In this document: piece after piece, positions 8,182 to 54,289 of the stretch | How the letters are laid out: each line of letters begins with the position of its first letter | Position numbering within the stretch: the stretch's first letter is position 1 | Translations under genes and position numbers: made by a program | The notes under the pieces: generated by a model | Told to the model about the DNA's origin: nothing | Databases searched by the model: none | The model's input: the letters and a program-made list of their open reading frames with translations, nothing else | Assembly (NCBI RefSeq): GCF_900230195.1 | Contig: NZ_OCNE01000014.1 | Span: forward strand, 62,001-126,000 | DNA from: Streptomyces zhaozhouensis | GTDB taxonomy: Bacteria; Actinomycetota; Actinomycetes; Streptomycetales; Streptomycetaceae | Direction: 5' to 3' | Length of the DNA stretch: 64,000 nucleotides

Positions 8182-8592
8182 GTGTATGCGAGACCCCGAC
8201 TTCCCGATCCCGTGCGCACCGCCGCCGTGCGCGCGGTGATCATCATCGCCCTGACGCTCTGCCAGCTCGTCGTGATGCTGCTGGCGTTGCTCGCCGGCTC
8301 CTGGCTGGTGCTGCCGATGGCCATATCGACGTTGCTCAGCGCCGTGGTGGCGACCTGGTCCGTGCTGGACATCTGGGTGACCTCGCAGTCCTGGCGGCAG
8401 CGCAACGGCGTGGTCTCCGTGCCGAGCAGCGTCGCGCGGGCCAACGCCAGGGCCCGGCGCGCCGAGCGCCGGGCCGCGAGGAAGGCGGCGCGCCGTCAGG
8501 GCAGGGGCGCCGCGCCGGCGTCCGGGGCGGGCGCCGAGGGGGCGGAGGGCGCCGAGGGGGCCGGCGACTGGGACGTGTTGGGCCTGCGGTAG
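8182..8592 (+). CDS. small two-helix membrane protein
   Basis: This 136-residue protein from a GTG start (GGGGG about 10 nt upstream) has two predicted membrane helices: VIIIALTLCQLVVMLLALLA, then a second span through PMAISTLLSAVVATWSVLDIW. A basic cytoplasmic segment rich in Arg/Ala follows (ANARARRAERRAARKAARR), then a low-complexity Gly/Ala/Glu tail with GAEGAEGAEGAG. I recognise no enzyme motif. It looks like the small membrane proteins commonly conserved in Streptomyces. Its last 97 bp overlap, antisense, the 3' end of the SMC-like gene at 8496-13130, and both proteins are low-complexity exactly in that overlap. Which stop evolved by extension cannot be told from one sequence. Confidence 0.7.
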   Translation: MYARPRLPDPVRTAAVRAVIIIALTLCQLVVMLLALLAGSWLVLPMAISTLLSAVVATWSVLDIWVTSQSWRQRNGVVSVPSSVARANARARRAERRAARKAARRQGRGAAPASGAGAEGAEGAEGAGDWDVLGLR

Positions 8593-11500
8593 ACGCGGGT
8601 GGCGGTGACCTCGCCGTGCACCGGCTCGGCCTCCTCGTCGGTACGCGGCAGCCCGGGGCGCAGATGCTCCTCGACGCTGATGTACTTCAGCCCGGCGCGC
8701 AGGTCCGCGTCGTTGCGCAACCGGATCACCAGGGGGAACTCGGCCAGCGCCGTGGTGTCGAACAGGCCCGTGGTGTAGAGGAGTTGCACGCCGAGGGCGT
8801 CGGCGACCGCGCGTTGCAGCTCCAGCAGATAGGTGGCGTTGGCGCGACCGATGGGGTTGTCCAGGAAGAGCGTGCCGGCGTGCCGGTGGCCGTCGCGGCC
8901 CCGGTCGTTGCCGCGCAGCGCGGCCATCGTGCAGTAGAGGGCGATGGCGGCGGTCAGCAACTGGCCGCCGGAGAAGACGTCTCCCATCTGGCCGACGGGG
9001 ACCCGCTCGGCGCGCAGCACCGCGTCCGGCTTGAGGATCTCCACGCGCACACCGGCCGGGCGGATCGCCGCGTGCGTGCCGCGCAGCAGCAGGGAGACGC
9101 CGTCCCGGCGCAGGTCCGTGTTCTTCCGGACGGCGGCGCGGGTCACCTCGTCGACGACCTCGCCCAGGCGCTCGGTGAGCGTCGCCTGGTCGGGCTCGTC
9201 GAAGCGGATGCGCAGGAACTCCTGCCCCGACCACTCCCCCAGCCCCTCGGGCAGCCGGGAGAGCCGCTGCGCGGAACGGAGGGTGGCCAGCGCCGACTCG
9301 ACGAGGCCGCGCAGCCGGTCGACGATGCCGTCCCTGTTCCGCTCCAGCTGGGTCAACTCGTCGCCGAGCACCCGCAGCCGGGGGGCGAACGCCTCGGCCC
9401 AGGCCGCCGCGTGGGTGGGCAGGGCGGCGGCGGGCAGCTCCCTGATCTGGGTGCGGGCCGGGGTGCGGACCTGCTCGTAGCGGCTGGCGTTGGCGTGCCG
9501 CACCAGCTGGTCGCAGGCGTCCCGCACGGCGGACTCGGCGGCGGCCAGCCCGGAGCCCGCGGCGCGGAGCGCGCGGCGGGCGTCGCCGACGGCCGCCCTG
9601 GCCTCCTCGATGGCGCCGGGGTAGGGCTCGGGCGCGGCCGGCGCCTGGTCCGACTCCTCGCCGGGGTCGCGGAGTTGATCGCCGAGCTGGGCGGCGCTCT
9701 CGGCGAAGCCCTCGGCGGCGCGCACCGCGCGGGCGTGCTGCTCGGCCAGGGCCCGGTGGGCGGTCTCGGCCTCGGCAAGCTCCTCCTCGCGCGCGGCCAG
9801 CTCCGCCTCGGCGGCGCGCAGCAGCTCGGCCGCGCGCGGCGCGTCCTCGGGGACGCGGTCCTCGGGCAGCTCGATGTGGGCGGCGCCCTCGGCGGGCGCC
9901 AGCCGCTCGGCCTCGCCGCGCAGCCGGCCCAGCCGCTCGCTGGCGGCGGCAGAACGCCCCTCCAGCGCCTGGACCTGCGCCTCGGCGCGCTCGGCCGCGG
10001 CGCGGCGGGAGGGGCCGTCGGCGCCGTCCGGGCCGTCCAGGAGGCGGGCGGCGCGGGTGCGGACCTTGTTGCTCAGGCGGTCCAGCGCGGCGCGGGCCGC
10101 CGACTCGTCGCCCTCGGCGCGGGCCTGCTCGGCGCGCAGGTCGGCGCCGACACCGACCTTCTCGTAGAGCCGGGAGGCCGAACGGTACGCCTCGCGCAGC
10201 GCGGGCAGCGAGGTCTCCGCGTCGGGCGAGGCCCCCTCGACCGCGTCGTCGGGGGCGCCGGAGACCTCGGCGCGCTCGGCGCGCAGCGCGTGCGCGGTGC
10301 GGCGGGCGTCGTCGGCGGCGCGCTGCGCGGCGCGGCGGTCCTCGTCCGCGGCCTGGGCGACGGTCAGCAGCTCGGCGGCGCGGGCCTCGGCGTCGGCGGC
10401 CTCGGCCGCCAGCTCCCGCGTCCGCGACCGCCACCGGCCGCGCTCCCGCAGCCGGGAGGCGAGGCCGACCAGCGCGTCGGCGGCGCGGCCGGCGCGCTGC
10501 GCCGCCTCCTGCCGGGCGTCCCTGGCCTCGGCGGCCTCGGTCGCGGCGGCGGCCGCCTCGTCGGCCTCGGCGACCAGCGCCGTCAGCCGGGCCTCGGCCT
10601 CGACCGCCCGCGCGGCGGTGCGTTCGGCCGCGGCGTCCAGCTCGCCGAGCCGGCCGGCCGGGCAGCCCGCGCGCCAGGAGGCGAGCCGGGCGGCCAGCGC
10701 CCGGTCGCCGGTGACACGGGCGGCCAGCGTCCTGATGTCCGTGTCGCGCGCGCCCGCGCGGGCGCGCAGCGCCTGGCGTTCGTCGTCGGCGGCGCGCTCG
10801 TCGTGCATCGCGGGGTTGGGCGGGACCAGGAAGATGCCGCTGTCCGCGCCGCCGGGCGGCGGGGTCGGGGCGAGCAGCGCGGCGGCGGTGCCGACGGCGA
10901 CGGCGGAACGGGGCAGCAGCGCGGCCTCGTCCAGCACCTCGCGGGCCCGGGCGTGGCTGTCCACGTCGGTGATGACGACGCCGTCGACCAGCTCGGGCCT
11001 GGCGGCCAGCACCGCCGCGTGATCGGCCGGGTCGACGGCCTGCGCGAGATAGCGCCAGCCGGGCAGGGCGGGAACGCCGTGCTCGCCGAGGAACTCGACG
11101 GTGGCCAGCACGTCGGGCCCCGGCGGCAGCAGGCCGCCGTCGCCGAGCGCGGCGAGGATGCGGGCGTCGTCGGCGGCCTCGGTGCGCAGCGAGAACAGGC
11201 GGCGCTCGGTCGTCTCCAGGGAGGCATCGAGCAGCCCGGCCAAAGTCTCCGCGTGCGTGTCGAGGTCGGCGACGGTCAACTCCTCGGCGACGCCAAGCAG
11301 CTCGGCGAGGCGGGGCTCGGCGGCCAGCGAGCCGGCGGTGGCGCGCTCGGCGGCCAGCGCGGCCTCGGCCGCCTGGGCGGCGTCGGCGGCGCGGGCGGCG
11401 GCCAGCTCGGCCGAGGCGCGCTCGCCGGCCAGCTCGCCGGCGCGCTCGGCGGCGCCGGCGGCGGCGATCCGCGCGGTCTCGAACGCGGCGACCGCCGCGC

Positions 11501-13130
11501 GGGAGGCGTCGGCCGCCGCGAGCGCGGCGGCGGCCGGGTCGGCGCCGGGGCCGTCCTCCAGCCAGCCGGCGCGAACGGCCTCCGCCATCTCCCGCTCGGC
11601 CTCCTCGAAGCGCTGCCGCAGATGGTCGGCCTCGCTGCGGGCGCGCTGCGCCTCGGTGGCGGCGGCGGTGGCGTCGCGGTGCGCGGTCCCCGCCTGGGCG
11701 ACGAGGGCCGCGGAGCGCTCCTCGTGCTCGGCGGCGGTGGCCTCCCCGCGCTCGGCCGCCGCGTGCAGGGCGCGCACCAGCGCGGCGGCGGCCTTCGACC
11801 TGGCGGCCAGCGCGGGCGCCGCGTCCCGCTCGGCCTCCTGGATGGCGGCGGCGACCCGCGCGGCGCGGTCGGCGGCGGCGCGGTGCTGGAGCACCGTCTC
11901 GGCGGCGGCCCAGGCGGCCTGCCGGGTGCGGGCCTCGGTCAGCTCGCGGCGCTGGGCCGTGGCCGCCTGCTCGGCGGCGGCCAGCGCCAACGACGCGTGG
12001 CGGAAGGCGAGTTCCGCGGTGATGCGGGCGGCCCTGGCGCGGGCCTCCTCGGCGCCGGCGACGGCCTCGGCGCCGTTATCCGCGCTCTCGGCCAGCTCGG
12101 CGGCCAGCCCCCGCTCGCGCTCGGCCCTGGCCGCCAGCCGCCGGGTCAGCCCGCGCGCCCGGTGCTCGGCGGCCGAGTGGACGGAACGGGCCGACTCGCG
12201 CTCGCCGGCCGCCTCCGTCACCCGGCCGAGCAACTCGACGGAGCCGGCCGTGAAGTCGCGCTCGGCGGTCAGCTCGGCGCGCCGGCCGAGCTTGTCGGCG
12301 AAGCCGTGCACCAGGTCGGCGAGGCCGTCGGTGTCCCTGGGGTCGGTGACGGCGCGCAGCAGCAGGTCGGTGAAGTCCACGTCGTTCTTCACCGCGAAGA
12401 GGCCGGCCGCCTCGCCCTCGTCCGCGTTCATCTCCCGCTGGTAGCGGAAGAGCTCGGGGTCGAGGCCGAGCCGGCCCAGGTGCTCGATCCAGCGCTCGTG
12501 GACCTCCTCCCAGACGACGTCGAGGTTCGGGTAGGCGCGGCCGGTCTCGGTGAGGACGTCGCGGAAGCCCTTCATGGTGCGGCGCCTGCCGCGCGCCCCC
12601 GAGCTGCCGTCGCCGGACTCGGGGCGGCGCAGCGCGGTGGACTCGGCGACGGGCAGCGAGTCCAGGCTCATCCCCGGGCCCGGCCGGAACGAGTACCACG
12701 CCTCGGCGAAACGGCGCGGGTCGTTCGACACCTGGCGGCCGCGCCACTCGCTGACCTTGCCGACGACGACGCTCTCGCCGGTGCGGGTGTGCTGCCACTC
12801 CAGGGCCACGTGGCCGCAGTCGTCGGCCAGCAGGAACTTGCGCAGCACGCCCGAGCTGGCGCCGCCCAGGGTGTTGCGGTGGCCGGGGAGCATCACGGAG
12901 AAGATCAGCTTGAGCAGCACCGACTTGCCGCCGCCGTTCTCCAGGAAGAGCACCCCGGCGGGGGCCGGGCGCAGCGGCGGGCCGGTGGGCTCGTCCTCGA
13001 AGAAGTCCGCCTGCGCGGGGGCGGGTTCGGGGACGGGCGCGCCGACGCCTCGCAGGTCGAGCACGGTGTCGGCGTAGCGGGCGCCGGCTGGGCCGATGGA
13101 GTAGAGGCGGACCCGGGACAGCTCGTACAT
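8496..13130 (-). CDS. MukB/MksB/JetC-like SMC ATPase with Asp-Asn Walker B
   Basis: This is a 1544-residue SMC-type ATPase, third gene of a kleisin-KITE-SMC operon. The N-terminal head has Walker A FLENGGGKS (64-70) after a family-specific opening MYELSRVRLYSIGP. Long Ala/Glu/Arg coiled coils flank a globular middle segment (roughly 640-790, with PGWRYLAQAVDP and IFLVPPNPAMHDERAADDE) in the hinge position. The C-terminal head has the signature DVFSGGQLLTAAIALY (Q at 1390) and a Walker B reading GTLFLDNPIGRA, with D1424 followed by N1425 where most ABC/SMC ATPases have Glu. I checked this on the DNA as GAC AAC. The tail is a Pro/Ser/Ala repeat overlapping the convergent gene by 97 bp. The likely role is DNA loop extrusion or plasmid restriction, by family only. 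Stand-alone ATPase activity is uncertain given the Asn. Confidence 0.8.
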   Translation of the reverse strand: MYELSRVRLYSIGPAGARYADTVLDLRGVGAPVPEPAPAQADFFEDEPTGPPLRPAPAGVLFLENGGGKSVLLKLIFSVMLPGHRNTLGGASSGVLRKFLLADDCGHVALEWQHTRTGESVVVGKVSEWRGRQVSNDPRRFAEAWYSFRPGPGMSLDSLPVAESTALRRPESGDGSSGARGRRRTMKGFRDVLTETGRAYPNLDVVWEEVHERWIEHLGRLGLDPELFRYQREMNADEGEAAGLFAVKNDVDFTDLLLRAVTDPRDTDGLADLVHGFADKLGRRAELTAERDFTAGSVELLGRVTEAAGERESARSVHSAAEHRARGLTRRLAARAERERGLAAELAESADNGAEAVAGAEEARARAARITAELAFRHASLALAAAEQAATAQRRELTEARTRQAAWAAAETVLQHRAAADRAARVAAAIQEAERDAAPALAARSKAAAALVRALHAAAERGEATAAEHEERSAALVAQAGTAHRDATAAATEAQRARSEADHLRQRFEEAEREMAEAVRAGWLEDGPGADPAAAALAAADASRAAVAAFETARIAAAGAAERAGELAGERASAELAAARAADAAQAAEAALAAERATAGSLAAEPRLAELLGVAEELTVADLDTHAETLAGLLDASLETTERRLFSLRTEAADDARILAALGDGGLLPPGPDVLATVEFLGEHGVPALPGWRYLAQAVDPADHAAVLAARPELVDGVVITDVDSHARAREVLDEAALLPRSAVAVGTAAALLAPTPPPGGADSGIFLVPPNPAMHDERAADDERQALRARAGARDTDIRTLAARVTGDRALAARLASWRAGCPAGRLGELDAAAERTAARAVEAEARLTALVAEADEAAAAATEAAEARDARQEAAQRAGRAADALVGLASRLRERGRWRSRTRELAAEAADAEARAAELLTVAQAADEDRRAAQRAADDARRTAHALRAERAEVSGAPDDAVEGASPDAETSLPALREAYRSASRLYEKVGVGADLRAEQARAEGDESAARAALDRLSNKVRTRAARLLDGPDGADGPSRRAAAERAEAQVQALEGRSAAASERLGRLRGEAERLAPAEGAAHIELPEDRVPEDAPRAAELLRAAEAELAAREEELAEAETAHRALAEQHARAVRAAEGFAESAAQLGDQLRDPGEESDQAPAAPEPYPGAIEEARAAVGDARRALRAAGSGLAAAESAVRDACDQLVRHANASRYEQVRTPARTQIRELPAAALPTHAAAWAEAFAPRLRVLGDELTQLERNRDGIVDRLRGLVESALATLRSAQRLSRLPEGLGEWSGQEFLRIRFDEPDQATLTERLGEVVDEVTRAAVRKNTDLRRDGVSLLLRGTHAAIRPAGVRVEILKPDAVLRAERVPVGQMGDVFSGGQLLTAAIALYCTMAALRGNDRGRDGHRHAGTLFLDNPIGRANATYLLELQRAVADALGVQLLYTTGLFDTTALAEFPLVIRLRNDADLRAGLKYISVEEHLRPGLPRTDEEAEPVHGEVTATRVYRRPNTSQSPAPSAPSAPSAPAPDAGAAPLP

Positions 13131-13184
13131 GGCGGGGACTCTCGTGCGTTTCTTACCTGGTAGGGGCGGTGTGGTGCGGCGGGC

Positions 13185-14060
13185 TCAGCGGTGGAACGGC
13201 AGTCCGGCGCCGTCGGCCAGATCGGTGGCGTCCGGGTCACCGGGCAGCAGCGTGCCGGTGCCGTCGCTGACGGGGACCAGACCCAGCTCGGTCAGCTCCG
13301 TCAGCGCGGCGGTGGTCGCCAGCTCGCGGACCTGGAGCTGGTAGCGGGGGGTGGTGCGGTAGGTGCCGCCCTGCTCGTCGCCGACGCGGTGCAGGAAGCC
13401 GGAGTCGGCGAGGAAGGCGACGGCCTTGCCGACGATGCCGGTCGTCGAACCGGCCAGCCGGCGGGCGTCCTTGGTGGCGCCGGTGGCGCTACGCCGGGCG
13501 TAGACCCGCCAGGCCGCCTCAAGCCCCGGCTCCTCGCTGGCGGGGTCCGTGTTCTCCCCGCGCTCGGCGGCGCGCTCGGCCAGCCGCTCGCAGGCGTGGC
13601 GGACGAAGGACTCCACGCCGTTGACCGTGATCCGGCCCAGGTAGTCGTCGTCGGCGAGGTCGGCCGGGCGGGGGAACGCCAGGGCGGCGACGGCGAGATG
13701 GGCCAGGCCGTGCAGGAAGCGGTCGGTGGTCTCGGCGGTGGTGCGGCGGGCGTACTCGCCCATGCGGACGGCGAAGACCGAGTCCTCGGCGGCGGCCACG
13801 GCCATCCCGGCGCGCGGGGAGACCTCCAGGACGACCAGTCCGAGGCCGCCGGCGACCGCGTCGGCGACGCGGGCGAAGGGCGGCTCCTCCTGGTAACGGC
13901 GGAGCAGGGCCGCGTAGTCGGCGTCCCTGGCCGGCGGCAGCTTGGGCTGGAGGCCGAAGGAGACCAGCCGGGCCGCGTCGGCGGCGTCGGCCGGGGTGAG
14001 CGGCGCCGCGGCCGGGGGCCCCTGGGGCGTGGGCGCTGTGGTGGCGGGCGGGATGGTCAA
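13185..14060 (-). CDS. MukE/MksE/JetB-like KITE subunit (predicted)
   Basis: This 291-residue protein is the middle gene of the SMC operon. It starts at TTG within TTGA, so start and upstream stop overlap by four bases, and GGAGGAG lies just upstream. That arrangement argues for translational coupling despite the rare start codon. After a Pro/Ala-rich head, the body (about 20-280) is helical, with LVSFGLQPKLPPARDADYAALLRRY near the start and winged-helix-like pieces such as GIVGKAVAFLADSGFLHRV and YRTTPRYQLQVREL. Length, position and winged-helix character match MukE/MksE/JetB proteins. The identity rests mainly on gene order, so moderate confidence is appropriate. It ends 54 bp before the SMC gene. 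Confidence 0.6.
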   Translation of the reverse strand: MTIPPATTAPTPQGPPAAAPLTPADAADAARLVSFGLQPKLPPARDADYAALLRRYQEEPPFARVADAVAGGLGLVVLEVSPRAGMAVAAAEDSVFAVRMGEYARRTTAETTDRFLHGLAHLAVAALAFPRPADLADDDYLGRITVNGVESFVRHACERLAERAAERGENTDPASEEPGLEAAWRVYARRSATGATKDARRLAGSTTGIVGKAVAFLADSGFLHRVGDEQGGTYRTTPRYQLQVRELATTAALTELTELGLVPVSDGTGTLLPGDPDATDLADGAGLPFHR

Positions 14061-15643
14061 CGGGTCTCCTCCGTGCGGGCGGCGGCCATGCCCGCCGCGT
14101 CCAGCAGGGCGGTGCCGACGACGAGGTCGGCGCCGCCGAAGTCAGGGTCGGTCAGCGGGGTGCCGTCGTCCACGGCGAACAACAGCCGCCGCTCGCCCTG
14201 CCGGTAGGCCGTGCCGACGGGCGGACTGGCCGCGTGCGCCGCGAGCAGCGCGATCAGGTGCGGCAGCTCGGGGTCGCGGGCGCGGGCGTCGGCGAGCAGC
14301 CCGGAGAGCCGGCGGGGGGCGTCGGGCGGCAGCCGCAGCAGCTCCGTCGCCGACTCCAACTGGGCCTCGCTGAACCGGCTGTCGTCCGGGGTCGCCACCA
14401 GGTCCGGCTCGGGCAGCTCGGCGCCCAGGTGCTCGCGGGGCGCGGGCGGGGTCAGCAACTGCTCGACGAGGTCGGTCAGCCGGACGGCGCCCGGCGGGCG
14501 GGGGCCGGTGCCCCGGGCGAACCAGGCGTCCGTCACCCGCGTCGCCCCGGCGACGGGCGTCGGCAGCAGCGGGGCGAGCAGTTGGCCGTACAGGTCGACG
14601 CCGGCGCGGGCGGCCGGGGCGGCGAACGCCTGGCGGTCCTGCTCGGCACGGAAGAGCGGGCCGGCCTCCAGCAGCCGGGACTGGAGCTGGGTGTGGCGCC
14701 GGATGCAGTCGCGGACGATGTCGACCAACTCGGCGGCGCGCAGCTTGTGTTCGGAGTCGACGGCCTCGTCCCTGGCGTGCCGGATGTGGGTGAGGATCGC
14801 GTTCTCGTGGCGGTAGCGGTCGGCGATGTGGTCCAGCGCCTCGTCGACCATGTCGGGCACGGTGTGCAGCCAGTCGACGGCGCGCACGTCCCGCCGGGTG
14901 GAGTCCAGCGTGCGGCGCAGCGTCTCCGCGTACTGCACGGTGCGGTAACGGGCCTGCTCGGCGGCGAGTTGCGCGTCGGCGAGGCGGCCCCTGTTGACCA
15001 GCACCTCCAGCTTGACCTCCGCGGCGATCTGGGCGCTGGTGACGTCGGTGTCGAGGGCGCCGACCAGGACGTTGACCGCCTCGTCCGTGGTCCGCAGGTA
15101 GACCGCGCCGCCGGGGCCCTGGACCTCCTCGATCAGCTTGAAGTCGTAGTCCCTGCGGGTGTATTCGCCGTCCGCGCCGAAGGTGCCGTAGACGGCGCGG
15201 AAGCCGCGGTCGACGCTGCCGACGTTGATCAGGTTGTCCACGACCCAGCGGGCGACGCGGCGGTGCTCGGCGACCGGGCGGCCCGGCGCCTGGGCCGCGA
15301 TCCTCGGCAGCAGCCTGGCGATGACCTGCTCCTGCTCGGCGCCGGTGTCGAAGTCCATCGCGAGGGTGACCAGGTCGATGGCGGCGAGCGCGACCTCGGC
15401 CATCGCGTAACGGGCGTACTCCCCGGCCAGGTTGGCCTTGCGGGTGTCCAGGTCGTGCAGCGGCGCGGTGCAGGCCAGGGCGCGCAGCCGGCGCGCCAGG
15501 CCCTCGTCGGCGGCGGGGCCGGGCGCGGGGCGGGGGGCCGGCGACGCGGACGCGGGCACCGGGGGCGGTGTCTGCGCGGCTGGTCCCGGCTGCGCGGGGG
15601 CCGGGGGTGGCGTGGTGCCGCCGCTGGGTGAGGGTACGGTCAC
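14057..15643 (-). CDS. MukF/MksF/JetA-like kleisin subunit (predicted)
   Basis: This is the first gene of the SMC operon, about 528 residues. A Pro/Ala-rich disordered head (about 45 residues) precedes a helical protein with LHDLDTRKANLAGEYARYAMAEVALAAIDLV cut across the first helices, a winged-helix-like part with YTRRDYDFKLIEEV, a long helical middle (RYRHENAILTHIRHARDEAVDSEHKLR region) and a C-terminal part ending in a small strand domain. This plan resembles MukF/MksF/JetA. I chose the GTG at 15643 because TAGGGT lies exactly seven bases upstream, the geometry of a leaderless actinobacterial transcript; the frame is open further upstream to 15757. Its 3' end overlaps the next gene's TTG start. 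No JetD-like (DUF2220 or topoisomerase VI-like) gene is adjacent. Confidence 0.6.
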   Translation of the reverse strand: MTVPSPSGGTTPPPAPAQPGPAAQTPPPVPASASPAPRPAPGPAADEGLARRLRALACTAPLHDLDTRKANLAGEYARYAMAEVALAAIDLVTLAMDFDTGAEQEQVIARLLPRIAAQAPGRPVAEHRRVARWVVDNLINVGSVDRGFRAVYGTFGADGEYTRRDYDFKLIEEVQGPGGAVYLRTTDEAVNVLVGALDTDVTSAQIAAEVKLEVLVNRGRLADAQLAAEQARYRTVQYAETLRRTLDSTRRDVRAVDWLHTVPDMVDEALDHIADRYRHENAILTHIRHARDEAVDSEHKLRAAELVDIVRDCIRRHTQLQSRLLEAGPLFRAEQDRQAFAAPAARAGVDLYGQLLAPLLPTPVAGATRVTDAWFARGTGPRPPGAVRLTDLVEQLLTPPAPREHLGAELPEPDLVATPDDSRFSEAQLESATELLRLPPDAPRRLSGLLADARARDPELPHLIALLAAHAASPPVGTAYRQGERRLLFAVDDGTPLTDPDFGGADLVVGTALLDAAGMAAARTEETR

Positions 15644-15767
15644 GAGGCACACCCTAGGCGGTGCCACCGACAACGCTCGATTCGGCACGGATGTGCGGCT
15701 TGTCCCGGGCGTGTCCGCGCGGTTCCTGGGTGCGGGCCAACGGCCGTGTGGGGGCACGATTCTCGTG

Positions 15768-37313: not shown

Positions 37314-39143
<1,830 letters not shown>

Positions 39144-39287
39144 CGTCCGGTACCCACCCCCCGTCGTCGACCCGTTGTCCGCCCTGGGCACCAGTATGGC
39201 GTCCCGCGCGGGACGTTCCTATGCCAAGTGGCGGGAAAGAGGTGGAACGGGCGGATGCGCGGCGTCCGTTGACGCCGGGGCGCGGCG

Positions 39288-51507: not shown

Positions 51508-51865
51508 TCACTCAAAAGTGGCGCCAACTCCCCGCTTCGCAGGACGAATTGATGGGTAGCTCGCCCGGATTCACGATCCGGCGGAAGGGCGGCCGCCGGA
51601 GACGGGGCACGCCTCGCTCGCCGGCCCGGGAGGAGGGCGCTGACCGGCTCGCAGACCGATGCCCGAACGGCCCCCACCAGGCACTAGGGTGGGGGCGCTC
51701 GGACGCGGTGACCACGCGCCGGGGCACGTGCGCCTGGCGTTCGACCAGCGCCCTGTCCGAACTCGCCTGTCATTACGTCCGGTTCACGGCGCGCTACGGT
51801 GGAGCGGCCGGACGCGCGCGATGAGGCGTCTTTCGATTTCGCACGAGGTTGGGGCACATCAGTCC
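51508..51865. other. gene-free divergent spacer upstream of the shells and the AAA+ gene
   Basis: The remaining 358 bp between the shell promoter and the beta-helix/AAA+ gene show no credible coding frame. The sequence is of mixed composition, with AT-rich patches near 51520 and 51830, where the rightward promoter should lie. Confidence 0.45.
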
Positions 51866-54289
51866 ATGGCTAAGGGCTCGGTCCAGGTGACGCACACCGG
51901 AACTGCACGCTGGCGGCGGCGGACGGCCGTCTACGCCACGGTCGCCGAGGCCCTGGCCGCCGCCGCCGACGGCGACGTGCTGCTGCTCGGCCCCGGCACC
52001 TACCGCGAGAACCTGGTGATCGAGCAGGCGGTGACGATACGCGGCCCCCAGGACGACCGGGACGGCCCCGCGCGGATCGCACCCGTCGAGGGCGTTCCGC
52101 TGACGGTGCGCGGCTCCGCGACCGTGCGGGAGTTGCTGCTTGAGGGCCAGGACACGACCGTGCCCGCCGTGCTGGTGGAGAGCAGCACACCGGAGCTCTC
52201 GGGGCTGCGGGTGCGGACCGCCTCGGCGGCCGGCGTCGAGGTGCGGGCCGGCGCCCGCCCGACGGTGCGCGGCTGCGTGGTCGCGAACGCGACGGGCGTG
52301 GGCATCAACGTGAGCGACCAGGCCGGCGGGCTCTTCGAGGAGTGCCATGTCACCGAGTCGGGCCAGGCGGGCATCGCGGTGTCCGGCGCCGCCCATCTGC
52401 GGCTGGAGCGCTGCCGGGTGGAGCGGGCGACGGGCGCGGGGCTCTCGGTGACCGGCGAGGGCAGCGCGGTGGACGCGCTCGGCTGCGTGCTCGAACAGGT
52501 GAAGGGCGTCGGGGTGCGGCTGGCCGAGCGCGCCACCGCCCACCTGACGGAGTGTCAGGTGTCGGGAACGACCGGCGACGGGATCACCCTGGAGACCGAC
52601 GCCGTACTGACCCTCGCCGACAGCCGGTTGACCGACATCCCGGAGAACGCCCTGGATCTGCGGTCCCGTTCGGTGCTGACGCTGATGCGCACCGAGGTGA
52701 CCCGCTTCGGCCGCAACGGCGTCTCGGCCTGGGACCCGGGCACCCACGCGGACGTGCACGACTGCGAGATAGCCGAGTCCACCGGCGACTACCCGGCGGT
52801 CTGGGTGAGTGACGGGGCGACCGTCGTGCTGGAGTCCTGCACGGTGCGCCGGGTGCCGGACGCGCTGTTCGTCCTGGACTCCGGGTCACGCGCCGACGTG
52901 GTGGACAGCACGGTGGAGGACGTGCGCGGCTCGGCGGTCTCGGTGAGCGACGGCGCGACCGCGCGGCTGGACGACTGCCGGATCTCGGGCGCCGGCACCG
53001 GCGCCTGGTTCCGGGACGCCGGCAGCGGCGGCTCGGTCACCGGCTGCACCATCGAGCGCAGCAGGACCGGTCTGATCGTCACCAAGGGCGCCGATCCCGA
53101 GGTCTCCGACACCAGCGTGATCGGCCCGGCGGAGGCCGGGGTCTATGTCTCCGCGGGCGGCCGGGGCCGCTTCAGCCGCTGCCGGGTGACGGACTCCGGC
53201 GGCTACGGGTTCCACGTGCTGGACGGCTGCCGCACCGCGTTGCACCGCTGCCGCACCGAGCGCTGCGCGCGGGGCGGCTACGTCTTCGCCCAGGAGGGGC
53301 CCGAGGTGGTCGACTGCCACAGCGACGAGGCGGTGGCGCCCGGCGCGAAGCCGGCGCCCGTCAGGGCGACGGAGAGCGCCGCGCCCGTCCCGCCGCCAGC
53401 CGAGCCGGCCGCGAAGCCGGCCGCCAGGCCGGCGGCGGCGCCGGCCGCCGGGGCCGCCGGCGAGGAGCCGGCCGAACACCGGCCCTCCGAGACGGTGTTG
53501 GCCGAACTGGACGATCTCGTCGGCCTGCACAGCGTCAAGCGCGAGGTGCGGGCGCTGATCGACATGATCGAGGTGGGCCGCCGCCGGGTGGCCGCCGGCC
53601 TCAAGGCCGCCTCCGTGCGCCGGCACCTGGTCTTCACCGGCTCCCCCGGCACCGGCAAGACGACCGTGGCCCGCCTCTACGGCGAGATCCTCGCCTCGCT
53701 CGGGGTGCTGGAGCGCGGGCACCTGGTGGAGGTCTCCCGGGTCGACCTGGTGGGCGAGCACATCGGCTCCACCGCGATCCGCACCCAGGAGGTCTTCGAA
53801 CGGGCGCGCGGCGGGGTGCTGTTCATCGACGAGGCGTACGCGCTCTCCCCCGAGGACGGCGGCCGGGACTTCGGCAGGGAGGCCATCGACACCCTGGTGA
53901 AGCTGATGGAGGACCACCGCGAGGCCGTGGTGGTGATCGTCGCCGGCTACACCGAGGAGATGGCCCGCTTCCTGGCCACCAACCCGGGTGTCGCCTCCCG
54001 CTTCTCGCGCACGATCGCGTTCGGCGACTACGCGCCGGAGGAGCTGCTGAACATCGTCCGCCAGCAGTCCGGCGAGCACGAGTACGACCTCGGCGAGGGC
54101 ACGGAGGACGCGCTGCTGAAGCACTTCACGGCGATGGACCGGGGGCCGAGCTTCGGCAACGGACGCACGGCGCGGCAGACGTTCGAGGCGATGGTGGAAC
54201 GCCACGCGGGCCGCGTGGCGCGGCTGCCCGACCCCAGCACGGAGGAACTGACCGTCCTCCACCCGCAGGACCTCCCGCCCCTGCCCTGA
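51866..54289 (+). CDS. right-handed beta-helix fused to CbbX-type AAA+ ATPase
   Basis: This 807-residue cytoplasmic protein has two modules. Residues about 10-490 are a right-handed parallel beta-helix of pectate-lyase or Pbl type, with about 20 short rungs such as [38 protein letters not shown] and [20 protein letters not shown] Pro/Ala linker (about 490-545) leads to an AAA+ domain (545-800): [20 protein letters not shown], Walker [16 protein letters not shown] (near 591), sensor-type [15 protein letters not shown], Walker [17 protein letters not shown] (near 651), [23 protein letters not shown] (second sensor and arginine region). It is close to CbbX and EccA-type ATPases. The ATG at 51866 lacks a strong ribosome site. 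No secretion partners lie nearby. Confidence 0.88.

What the first reader, a model, noticed from the sequence alone, without database searches (positions are those of the whole stretch)
8496..15643. Three-gene SMC-kleisin-KITE operon without a JetD nuclease
Gene order (kleisin-like, KITE-like with TTGA overlap, then SMC) follows MukBEF/MksBEF/Wadjet. Adjacent genes on both sides are unrelated, so the Wadjet topoisomerase VI-like JetD is absent. This may be a housekeeping or anti-plasmid condensin variant of actinomycetes.
Basis: partly seen in the sequence, partly recalled or inferred. Interest (0 to 1): 0.75.

Follow-up and report, generated by a model that had tools for sequence, protein, structure and literature searches.

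The report
Nuclease-free Wadjet-type SMC complex of Streptomyces
Nearly every Streptomyces relative carries, at a mostly fixed place on its chromosome, the DNA-looping motor of the Wadjet anti-plasmid system without its DNA-cutting subunit, which suggests that a weapon against plasmids was turned into a permanent, still unstudied chromosome-handling machine.

Summary
Window 8496-15643 (minus strand) is a three-gene operon: jetA (kleisin, 14057-15643), jetB (KITE, 13185-14060), jetC (SMC, 8496-13130). JetA and JetC match PADLOC type III Wadjet models with 613 and 1402 bits. A Rhodococcus plasmid carries the same three genes plus jetD directly downstream. Predicted folds match MukF and MukE/JetB. 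Here jetD is missing: beside the operon, in the whole genome (two models), and in all 80 Streptomyces orthologous loci. Of 101 Streptomycetaceae genomes from 17 genera, 99 have the JetD-less type of JetA; convincing JetD3 occurs in 8, six of them beside a second, separate jetABC. A second family (f18) has the same arrangement. The JetD-less loci are largely syntenic, under purifying selection (dN/dS about 0.15-0.22), have invariant ATPase motifs and share a promoter-like element; JetD-bearing loci share no flanks. Best reading: type III Wadjet that lost its nuclease once or twice and became a core-genome, condensin-like loop extruder beside canonical SMC, parallel to MksBEF of P. aeruginosa. 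Structure, absence of JetD and evolutionary fixation are shown; the role is inferred. Nuclease-free or trans-nuclease plasmid control remains possible. I found no published description in Streptomyces.

The parts
14057..15643 (-). jetA (kleisin), 528 aa, GTG start
   Evidence: PDLC00567 JetA3 613 bits; 53% identity to JetA of a JetD-bearing Rhodococcus operon; predicted fold MukF-like, VIA-align Z 14.5, Foldseek E 1.3e-4; start GTG conserved in upstream alignment
13185..14060 (-). jetB (KITE, tandem winged helix), 291 aa, TTG start overlapping the jetA stop (TTGA)
   Evidence: 52% identity to Rhodococcus JetB; Foldseek top 14 hits are MukE/JetB, VIA-align Z 7.8 to E. coli JetB
8496..13130 (-). 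jetC (SMC ATPase), 1544 aa, ATG start, 54 bp after jetB
   Evidence: PDLC00588 JetC3 1402 bits over residues 1-1521; 39% identity over full length to Rhodococcus JetC
12921..12941 (-). jetC Walker A, ENGGGKS (residues 64-70)
   Evidence: invariant in 82 of 82 core copies
8961..8975 (-). jetC ABC signature, FSGGQ (residues 1386-1390)
   Evidence: invariant in 82 of 82 core copies
8853..8870 (-). jetC Walker B, LFLDNP (residues 1421-1426); Asn where other SMC proteins have the catalytic Glu
   Evidence: invariant in 82 core copies; DNP also in all 14 JetD-bearing type III JetC aligned
15644..15679 (-). conserved promoter-like element (CGTTGTC ... TAGGGT) ending 7 bp before the jetA GTG, suggesting a leaderless transcript
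   Evidence: alignment of 69 core upstream regions, consensus CGTTT.Gg.CGtTGTCaG...CCTAgTCTGTgCacCGTGAC

Best explanation
The operon makes a JetA-JetB-JetC complex of the type III Wadjet lineage that lost the JetD nuclease and was kept as a core-genome, condensin-like machine. SHOWN here: subunit identities, intact ATPase motifs, absence of JetD in the genome and across most of the family, largely vertical fixation, purifying selection. INFERRED: JetC dimerises at its hinge, JetA bridges the two heads and binds JetB, JetA's MukF-like N-terminal part joins two such units, and ATP cycles extrude DNA loops. Without JetD, completing or stalling extrusion has no cutting outcome, so the complex acts on DNA by folding, tethering or compaction, most likely on the host chromosome beside the canonical SMC.
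For: Type III JetA/JetC profiles and kleisin/KITE folds. JetD absent: PF09983, PDLC00594 at E<=1, home-made JetD profile in 80 loci; the same kinds of search find JetD where it exists. JetA3 in 100 of 101 Streptomycetaceae genomes, 17 of 17 genera, against 11 with any JetD3 hit. Six genomes with JetD have a second jetABC beside it and keep the JetD-less one. Synteny: 62 of 79 loci have the same histidine-kinase operon within 6 kb downstream; JetD-bearing loci share no flanks. dN/dS medians 0.147, 0.219, 0.201 for A, B, C; ATPase motifs invariant. Core copies are one clade in JetA, JetB and JetC trees. Canonical SMC is present too, 936 bits. Precedent: P. aeruginosa MksBEF, which likely arose by JetD loss and acts on the chromosome (PMC10586767).
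Against: No experiment. The operon usually lies in the chromosome arms (12 of 15 long-contig genomes within the outer 20% of the length at each end), where accessory genes are common. The window's own copy evolves faster than the median (dN/dS 0.28-0.41). A few genomes have broken copies (G012 JetC in pieces). Walker B has Asn for the catalytic Glu, though JetD-bearing relatives share this.
Confidence: 0.55

Rival explanations
1. Plasmid or phage control without JetD: JetABC entraps or compacts small circular DNA so that it is silenced or lost, or recruits an unrelated nuclease encoded elsewhere.
For: All close JetD-bearing relatives are presumed anti-plasmid systems by kinship; Smc5/6 restricts circular viral DNA without its own nuclease (PMC10586767). 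Position in the arms is like that of Wadjet calls in Streptomyces (PMC10482375).
Against: Near-universal, single-copy, syntenic and under purifying selection, unlike the mobile-looking JetD-bearing loci. No conserved new gene in the operon; the next gene downstream is a convergent small membrane protein found in only 45 of 79 loci.
Confidence: 0.3
2. A full Wadjet with JetD acting in trans from another locus.
For: 8 of 101 family genomes hold a convincing JetD3 gene.
Against: None in this genome, which is rated 100% complete. In six of the eight, JetD has its own adjacent jetABC; about 90 of 101 genomes have JetABC with no JetD3 hit.
Confidence: 0.04
3. A decaying remnant of a Wadjet locus that lost one gene.
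For: A few copies are broken (G012) and the window lineage evolves faster.
Against: 82 copies with invariant ATPase motifs, dN/dS about 0.15-0.22, conserved promoter-like element, presence in 99 of 101 genomes.
Confidence: 0.03

Closest known systems
Wadjet type III (JetABCD; Doron et al. 2018)
   Same: Gene order, JetA3 and JetC3 profiles, JetB identity 52% to a JetD-bearing Rhodococcus operon
   Different: No JetD; core-genome, largely syntenic and vertically inherited rather than mobile
MksBEF of Pseudomonas aeruginosa (three-gene, without MksG)
   Same: Kleisin-KITE-SMC without nuclease; thought to come from JetABCD by JetD loss and to act on the chromosome (PMC10586767)
   Different: Another lineage: only type III Wadjet models match here, so the loss of the nuclease is presumably independent; near-universal in its family
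MksBEFG/EptABCD of Corynebacterium and Mycobacterium
   Same: Second SMC complex in an actinobacterium beside Smc-ScpAB; kleisin MksF carries the nuclease (PMC7083940)
   Different: Has the nuclease MksG; in C. glutamicum acts on non-chromosomal DNA only (PMC7083940)
MukBEF
   Same: Kleisin-KITE-SMC order and folds: MukF Z 14.5, MukE Z 7.0
   Different: No sequence-level relationship found in PDB search; canonical SMC is kept here

Membership tests
Wadjet type III (JetABCD) | JetC3 SMC protein | tested here: met
   PDLC00588 1402 bits
Wadjet type III (JetABCD) | JetA3 kleisin | tested here: met
   PDLC00567 613 bits; MukF-like fold
Wadjet type III (JetABCD) | JetB KITE protein | tested here: met
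   52% identity to JetB of a JetD-bearing operon; MukE/JetB-like fold; no PADLOC JetB3 hit, but the JetD-bearing Rhodococcus JetB reaches only 4e-4 as well
Wadjet type III (JetABCD) | JetD Toprim nuclease in the operon | tested here: not met
   No JetD beside the operon or in the genome
Wadjet type III (JetABCD) | Restricts small circular plasmids by cleavage | not testable with these tools
   needs plasmid assays
MksBEF (nuclease-free chromosomal condensin) | Three-gene kleisin-KITE-SMC operon without nuclease | tested here: met
MksBEF (nuclease-free chromosomal condensin) | Sequence membership in the MksB/MksE/MksF families | tested here: inconclusive
   Pfam and NCBIfam give no SMC/Muk/Mks match above cut-off; only type III JetC3/JetA3 models match; no dedicated MksB/E/F profile was run
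MksBEF (nuclease-free chromosomal condensin) | Acts in chromosome organisation | not testable with these tools
   needs deletion strains and Hi-C
SMC complex (general) | Intact Walker A, signature motif and Walker B Asp in one SMC protein | tested here: met
   ENGGGKS, FSGGQ, LFLDNP invariant in 82 copies
SMC complex (general) | Hinge domain between the two coiled-coil halves | tested here: inconclusive
   a conserved non-repetitive stretch near residues 655-760 fits a hinge, but its fold was not predicted
SMC complex (general) | Catalytic Glu after the Walker B Asp | tested here: not met
   Asn in every type III JetC aligned there, with or without JetD

The most novel reading that the evidence does not exclude
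Streptomycetaceae and a second actinomycete family have fixed a nuclease-free type III Wadjet motor as a second, dedicated condensin for their large chromosomes: a direct case of an immune machine turned into a housekeeping chromosome organiser, with the armed version still circulating in some of the same genomes.
Probability: 0.45. Interest if true: 0.8.

Novelty: new variant of a known kind. Interest (0 to 1): 0.6.

Why it matters
Wadjet, MukBEF and MksBEF are thought to be linked by gain or loss of the JetD nuclease, but the direction is argued from few examples. Here armed and disarmed versions of one lineage coexist in one family, even in one genome, so the change can be studied directly. 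It also adds an unstudied, near-universal SMC complex to Streptomyces, where chromosome folding is ascribed to a single SMC, and warns that surveys which score JetA/JetC alone may count it as plasmid defence.

Tried and rejected
Pfam and NCBIfam scans of the three proteins gave nothing useful; sequence searches of the PDB also gave nothing, so type III has no close solved relative by sequence. Several protein searches over many genomes failed on the server, and family models were used instead. The weak JetD3 hits at E 1e-3 to 1e-6 in other genomes cover only part of the Toprim region and were not counted as JetD. A single JetD loss is suggested by the JetA tree (orphans one clade, 93/81), but the JetB and JetC trees put the JetD-bearing L172/L173/L179 group among the orphans with weak support (46); one versus two losses is left open. 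Idea that an N-terminal JetD-contact motif of JetB is lost: type III JetB shows no IFDR-like motif even with JetD, so not testable. Decay and JetD in trans were rejected (see rivals).

Full report
What is there. Three genes on the minus strand form an operon: jetA 14057-15643, jetB 13185-14060, jetC 8496-13130. jetA and jetB overlap by TTGA and jetC starts 54 bp after jetB.

What the proteins are. PADLOC type III Wadjet models match JetC (1402 bits, residues 1-1521) and JetA (613 bits). JetB matches no PADLOC model, but the models are weak for this branch: JetB of a JetD-bearing Rhodococcus operon scores only 4e-4. That Rhodococcus plasmid has the same three genes, with 53%, 52% and 39% identity (A, B, C), followed directly by a gene annotated as JetD. 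AlphaFold2 models from alignments of 36 relatives (mean pLDDT 73-74) were compared with the PDB: JetB ranks MukE and Wadjet JetB first (Foldseek ranks 1-14; VIA-align Z 7.8, 178 residues, rmsd 5.2), JetA ranks MukF first (Foldseek E 1.3e-4; Z 14.5, 233 residues, rmsd 6.7). These Z values alone are moderate, and the JetA list also holds unrelated long-helix proteins at Z 13; together with sequence kinship and gene order they settle kleisin and KITE.

JetD is absent. No JetD profile hit in the window; none in the genome with PF09983 or with the type III model PDLC00594 at E<=1. None in 80 Streptomyces loci with the same operon, up to 9 kb on each side where contigs allow. The home-made JetD profile (built from three JetD-bearing loci) also recovers JetD in a fourth plasmid locus and in 12 genome loci that the PADLOC model had flagged, so it is sensitive enough.

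Distribution. In 101 genomes of the family, JetA3 is found in 100, all 17 genera, nearly always once. JetD3 hits at E<=1e-3 occur in 11, convincing ones (E<1e-40) in 8. Six of the eight (G041, G042, G052, G061, G065, G100) have a second jetA within 10 kb of jetD and also the JetD-less one; G010 has only a JetD-linked, divergent set; G080 has JetD with a JetC fragment, plus the JetD-less set. So 99 of 101 have the JetD-less type of JetA. Across the class (297 genomes), JetA3 appears only in Streptomyces (28 of 28) and in 15 genomes of one other family, called f18 here, mostly again without JetD.

Fixed versus mobile. Around the JetD-less operon, 62 of 79 loci have the same NIT-type histidine-kinase operon within 6 kb downstream, 45 the same small convergent membrane protein, and upstream genes recur too. 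f18 loci share another set of neighbours among themselves. JetD-bearing loci share practically no neighbours with each other. Trees of JetA, JetB and JetC each give the Streptomycetaceae copies as one clade (100/99, 98, 100) and f18 as another, while relations to the nearest JetD-bearing loci are unresolved. JetD-bearing loci lie outside and around them, so loss of JetD is the simpler direction, once or twice.

Function retained. Walker A, signature and Walker B are invariant in 82 copies. Median dN/dS is 0.147 (A), 0.219 (B), 0.201 (C); the window's own copy is faster, 0.28-0.41. The head parts are most conserved (about 0.89-0.99 identity per 60-column block), parts of the coiled coil least. 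Canonical SMC is present in this genome (936 bits), so JetABC does not replace it.

Mechanism. From published work on Wadjet (PMC10586767, PMC12647877): JetABC dimers extrude DNA and JetD cuts when extrusion of a small circle is complete. Take JetD away and a loop extruder without a cutting output remains. P. [quoted passage not shown] I therefore favour a condensin-like role at 0.55; nuclease-free or trans-nuclease plasmid control is the main rival at 0.30. Nothing here measures function.

Literature. Ten searches of the held library found no description of a JetD-less JetABC in Streptomyces; a 2026 Streptomyces paper discusses SMC as the condensin and does not mention Wadjet. One survey reports Wadjet enriched in actinobacteria and towards Streptomyces chromosome ends; whether it counted these three-gene loci I could not tell. 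The library lacks most subscription journals, so prior mention cannot be excluded.

Noticed in passing
window 8853-8870 (-); L172-L183, L002-L005: Type III JetC has D-N-P in Walker B where other SMC ATPases have D-E: the catalytic Glu is an Asn in every copy examined, with or without JetD. Either hydrolysis uses another residue or the cycle is unusual.
   Followed up: partly
window 8182-8592 (+): Small conserved membrane protein convergent with and overlapping the jetC 3' end by 97 bp; same gene in 45 of 79 Streptomyces loci; no Pfam match.
   Followed up: partly
window 15644-15679 (-) and 69 upstream regions: Strongly conserved block CGTTT.Gg.CGtTGTCaG before the -10-like box of jetA; no good -35 at normal spacing, so possibly an activator site.
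   Followed up: partly
L172-L180 (G041, G042, G052, G061, G065, G100; f18 genomes G323, G332): Several actinomycete genomes carry both a JetD-less and a JetD-bearing type III jetABC, a natural armed/disarmed pair for comparison.
   Followed up: partly
L186 (G012), L181 (G080): JetC of the core operon appears in several frames in G012, and G080 has JetD with only a JetC fragment: pseudogenes or sequencing errors.
   Followed up: no
window 37314-39191 (-): Serine/threonine protein kinase fused to tetratricopeptide repeats.
   Followed up: no
window 51659-54289 (+): Right-handed beta-helix fused to an AAA ATPase with AAA_lid_6, an unusual-looking combination.
   Followed up: no
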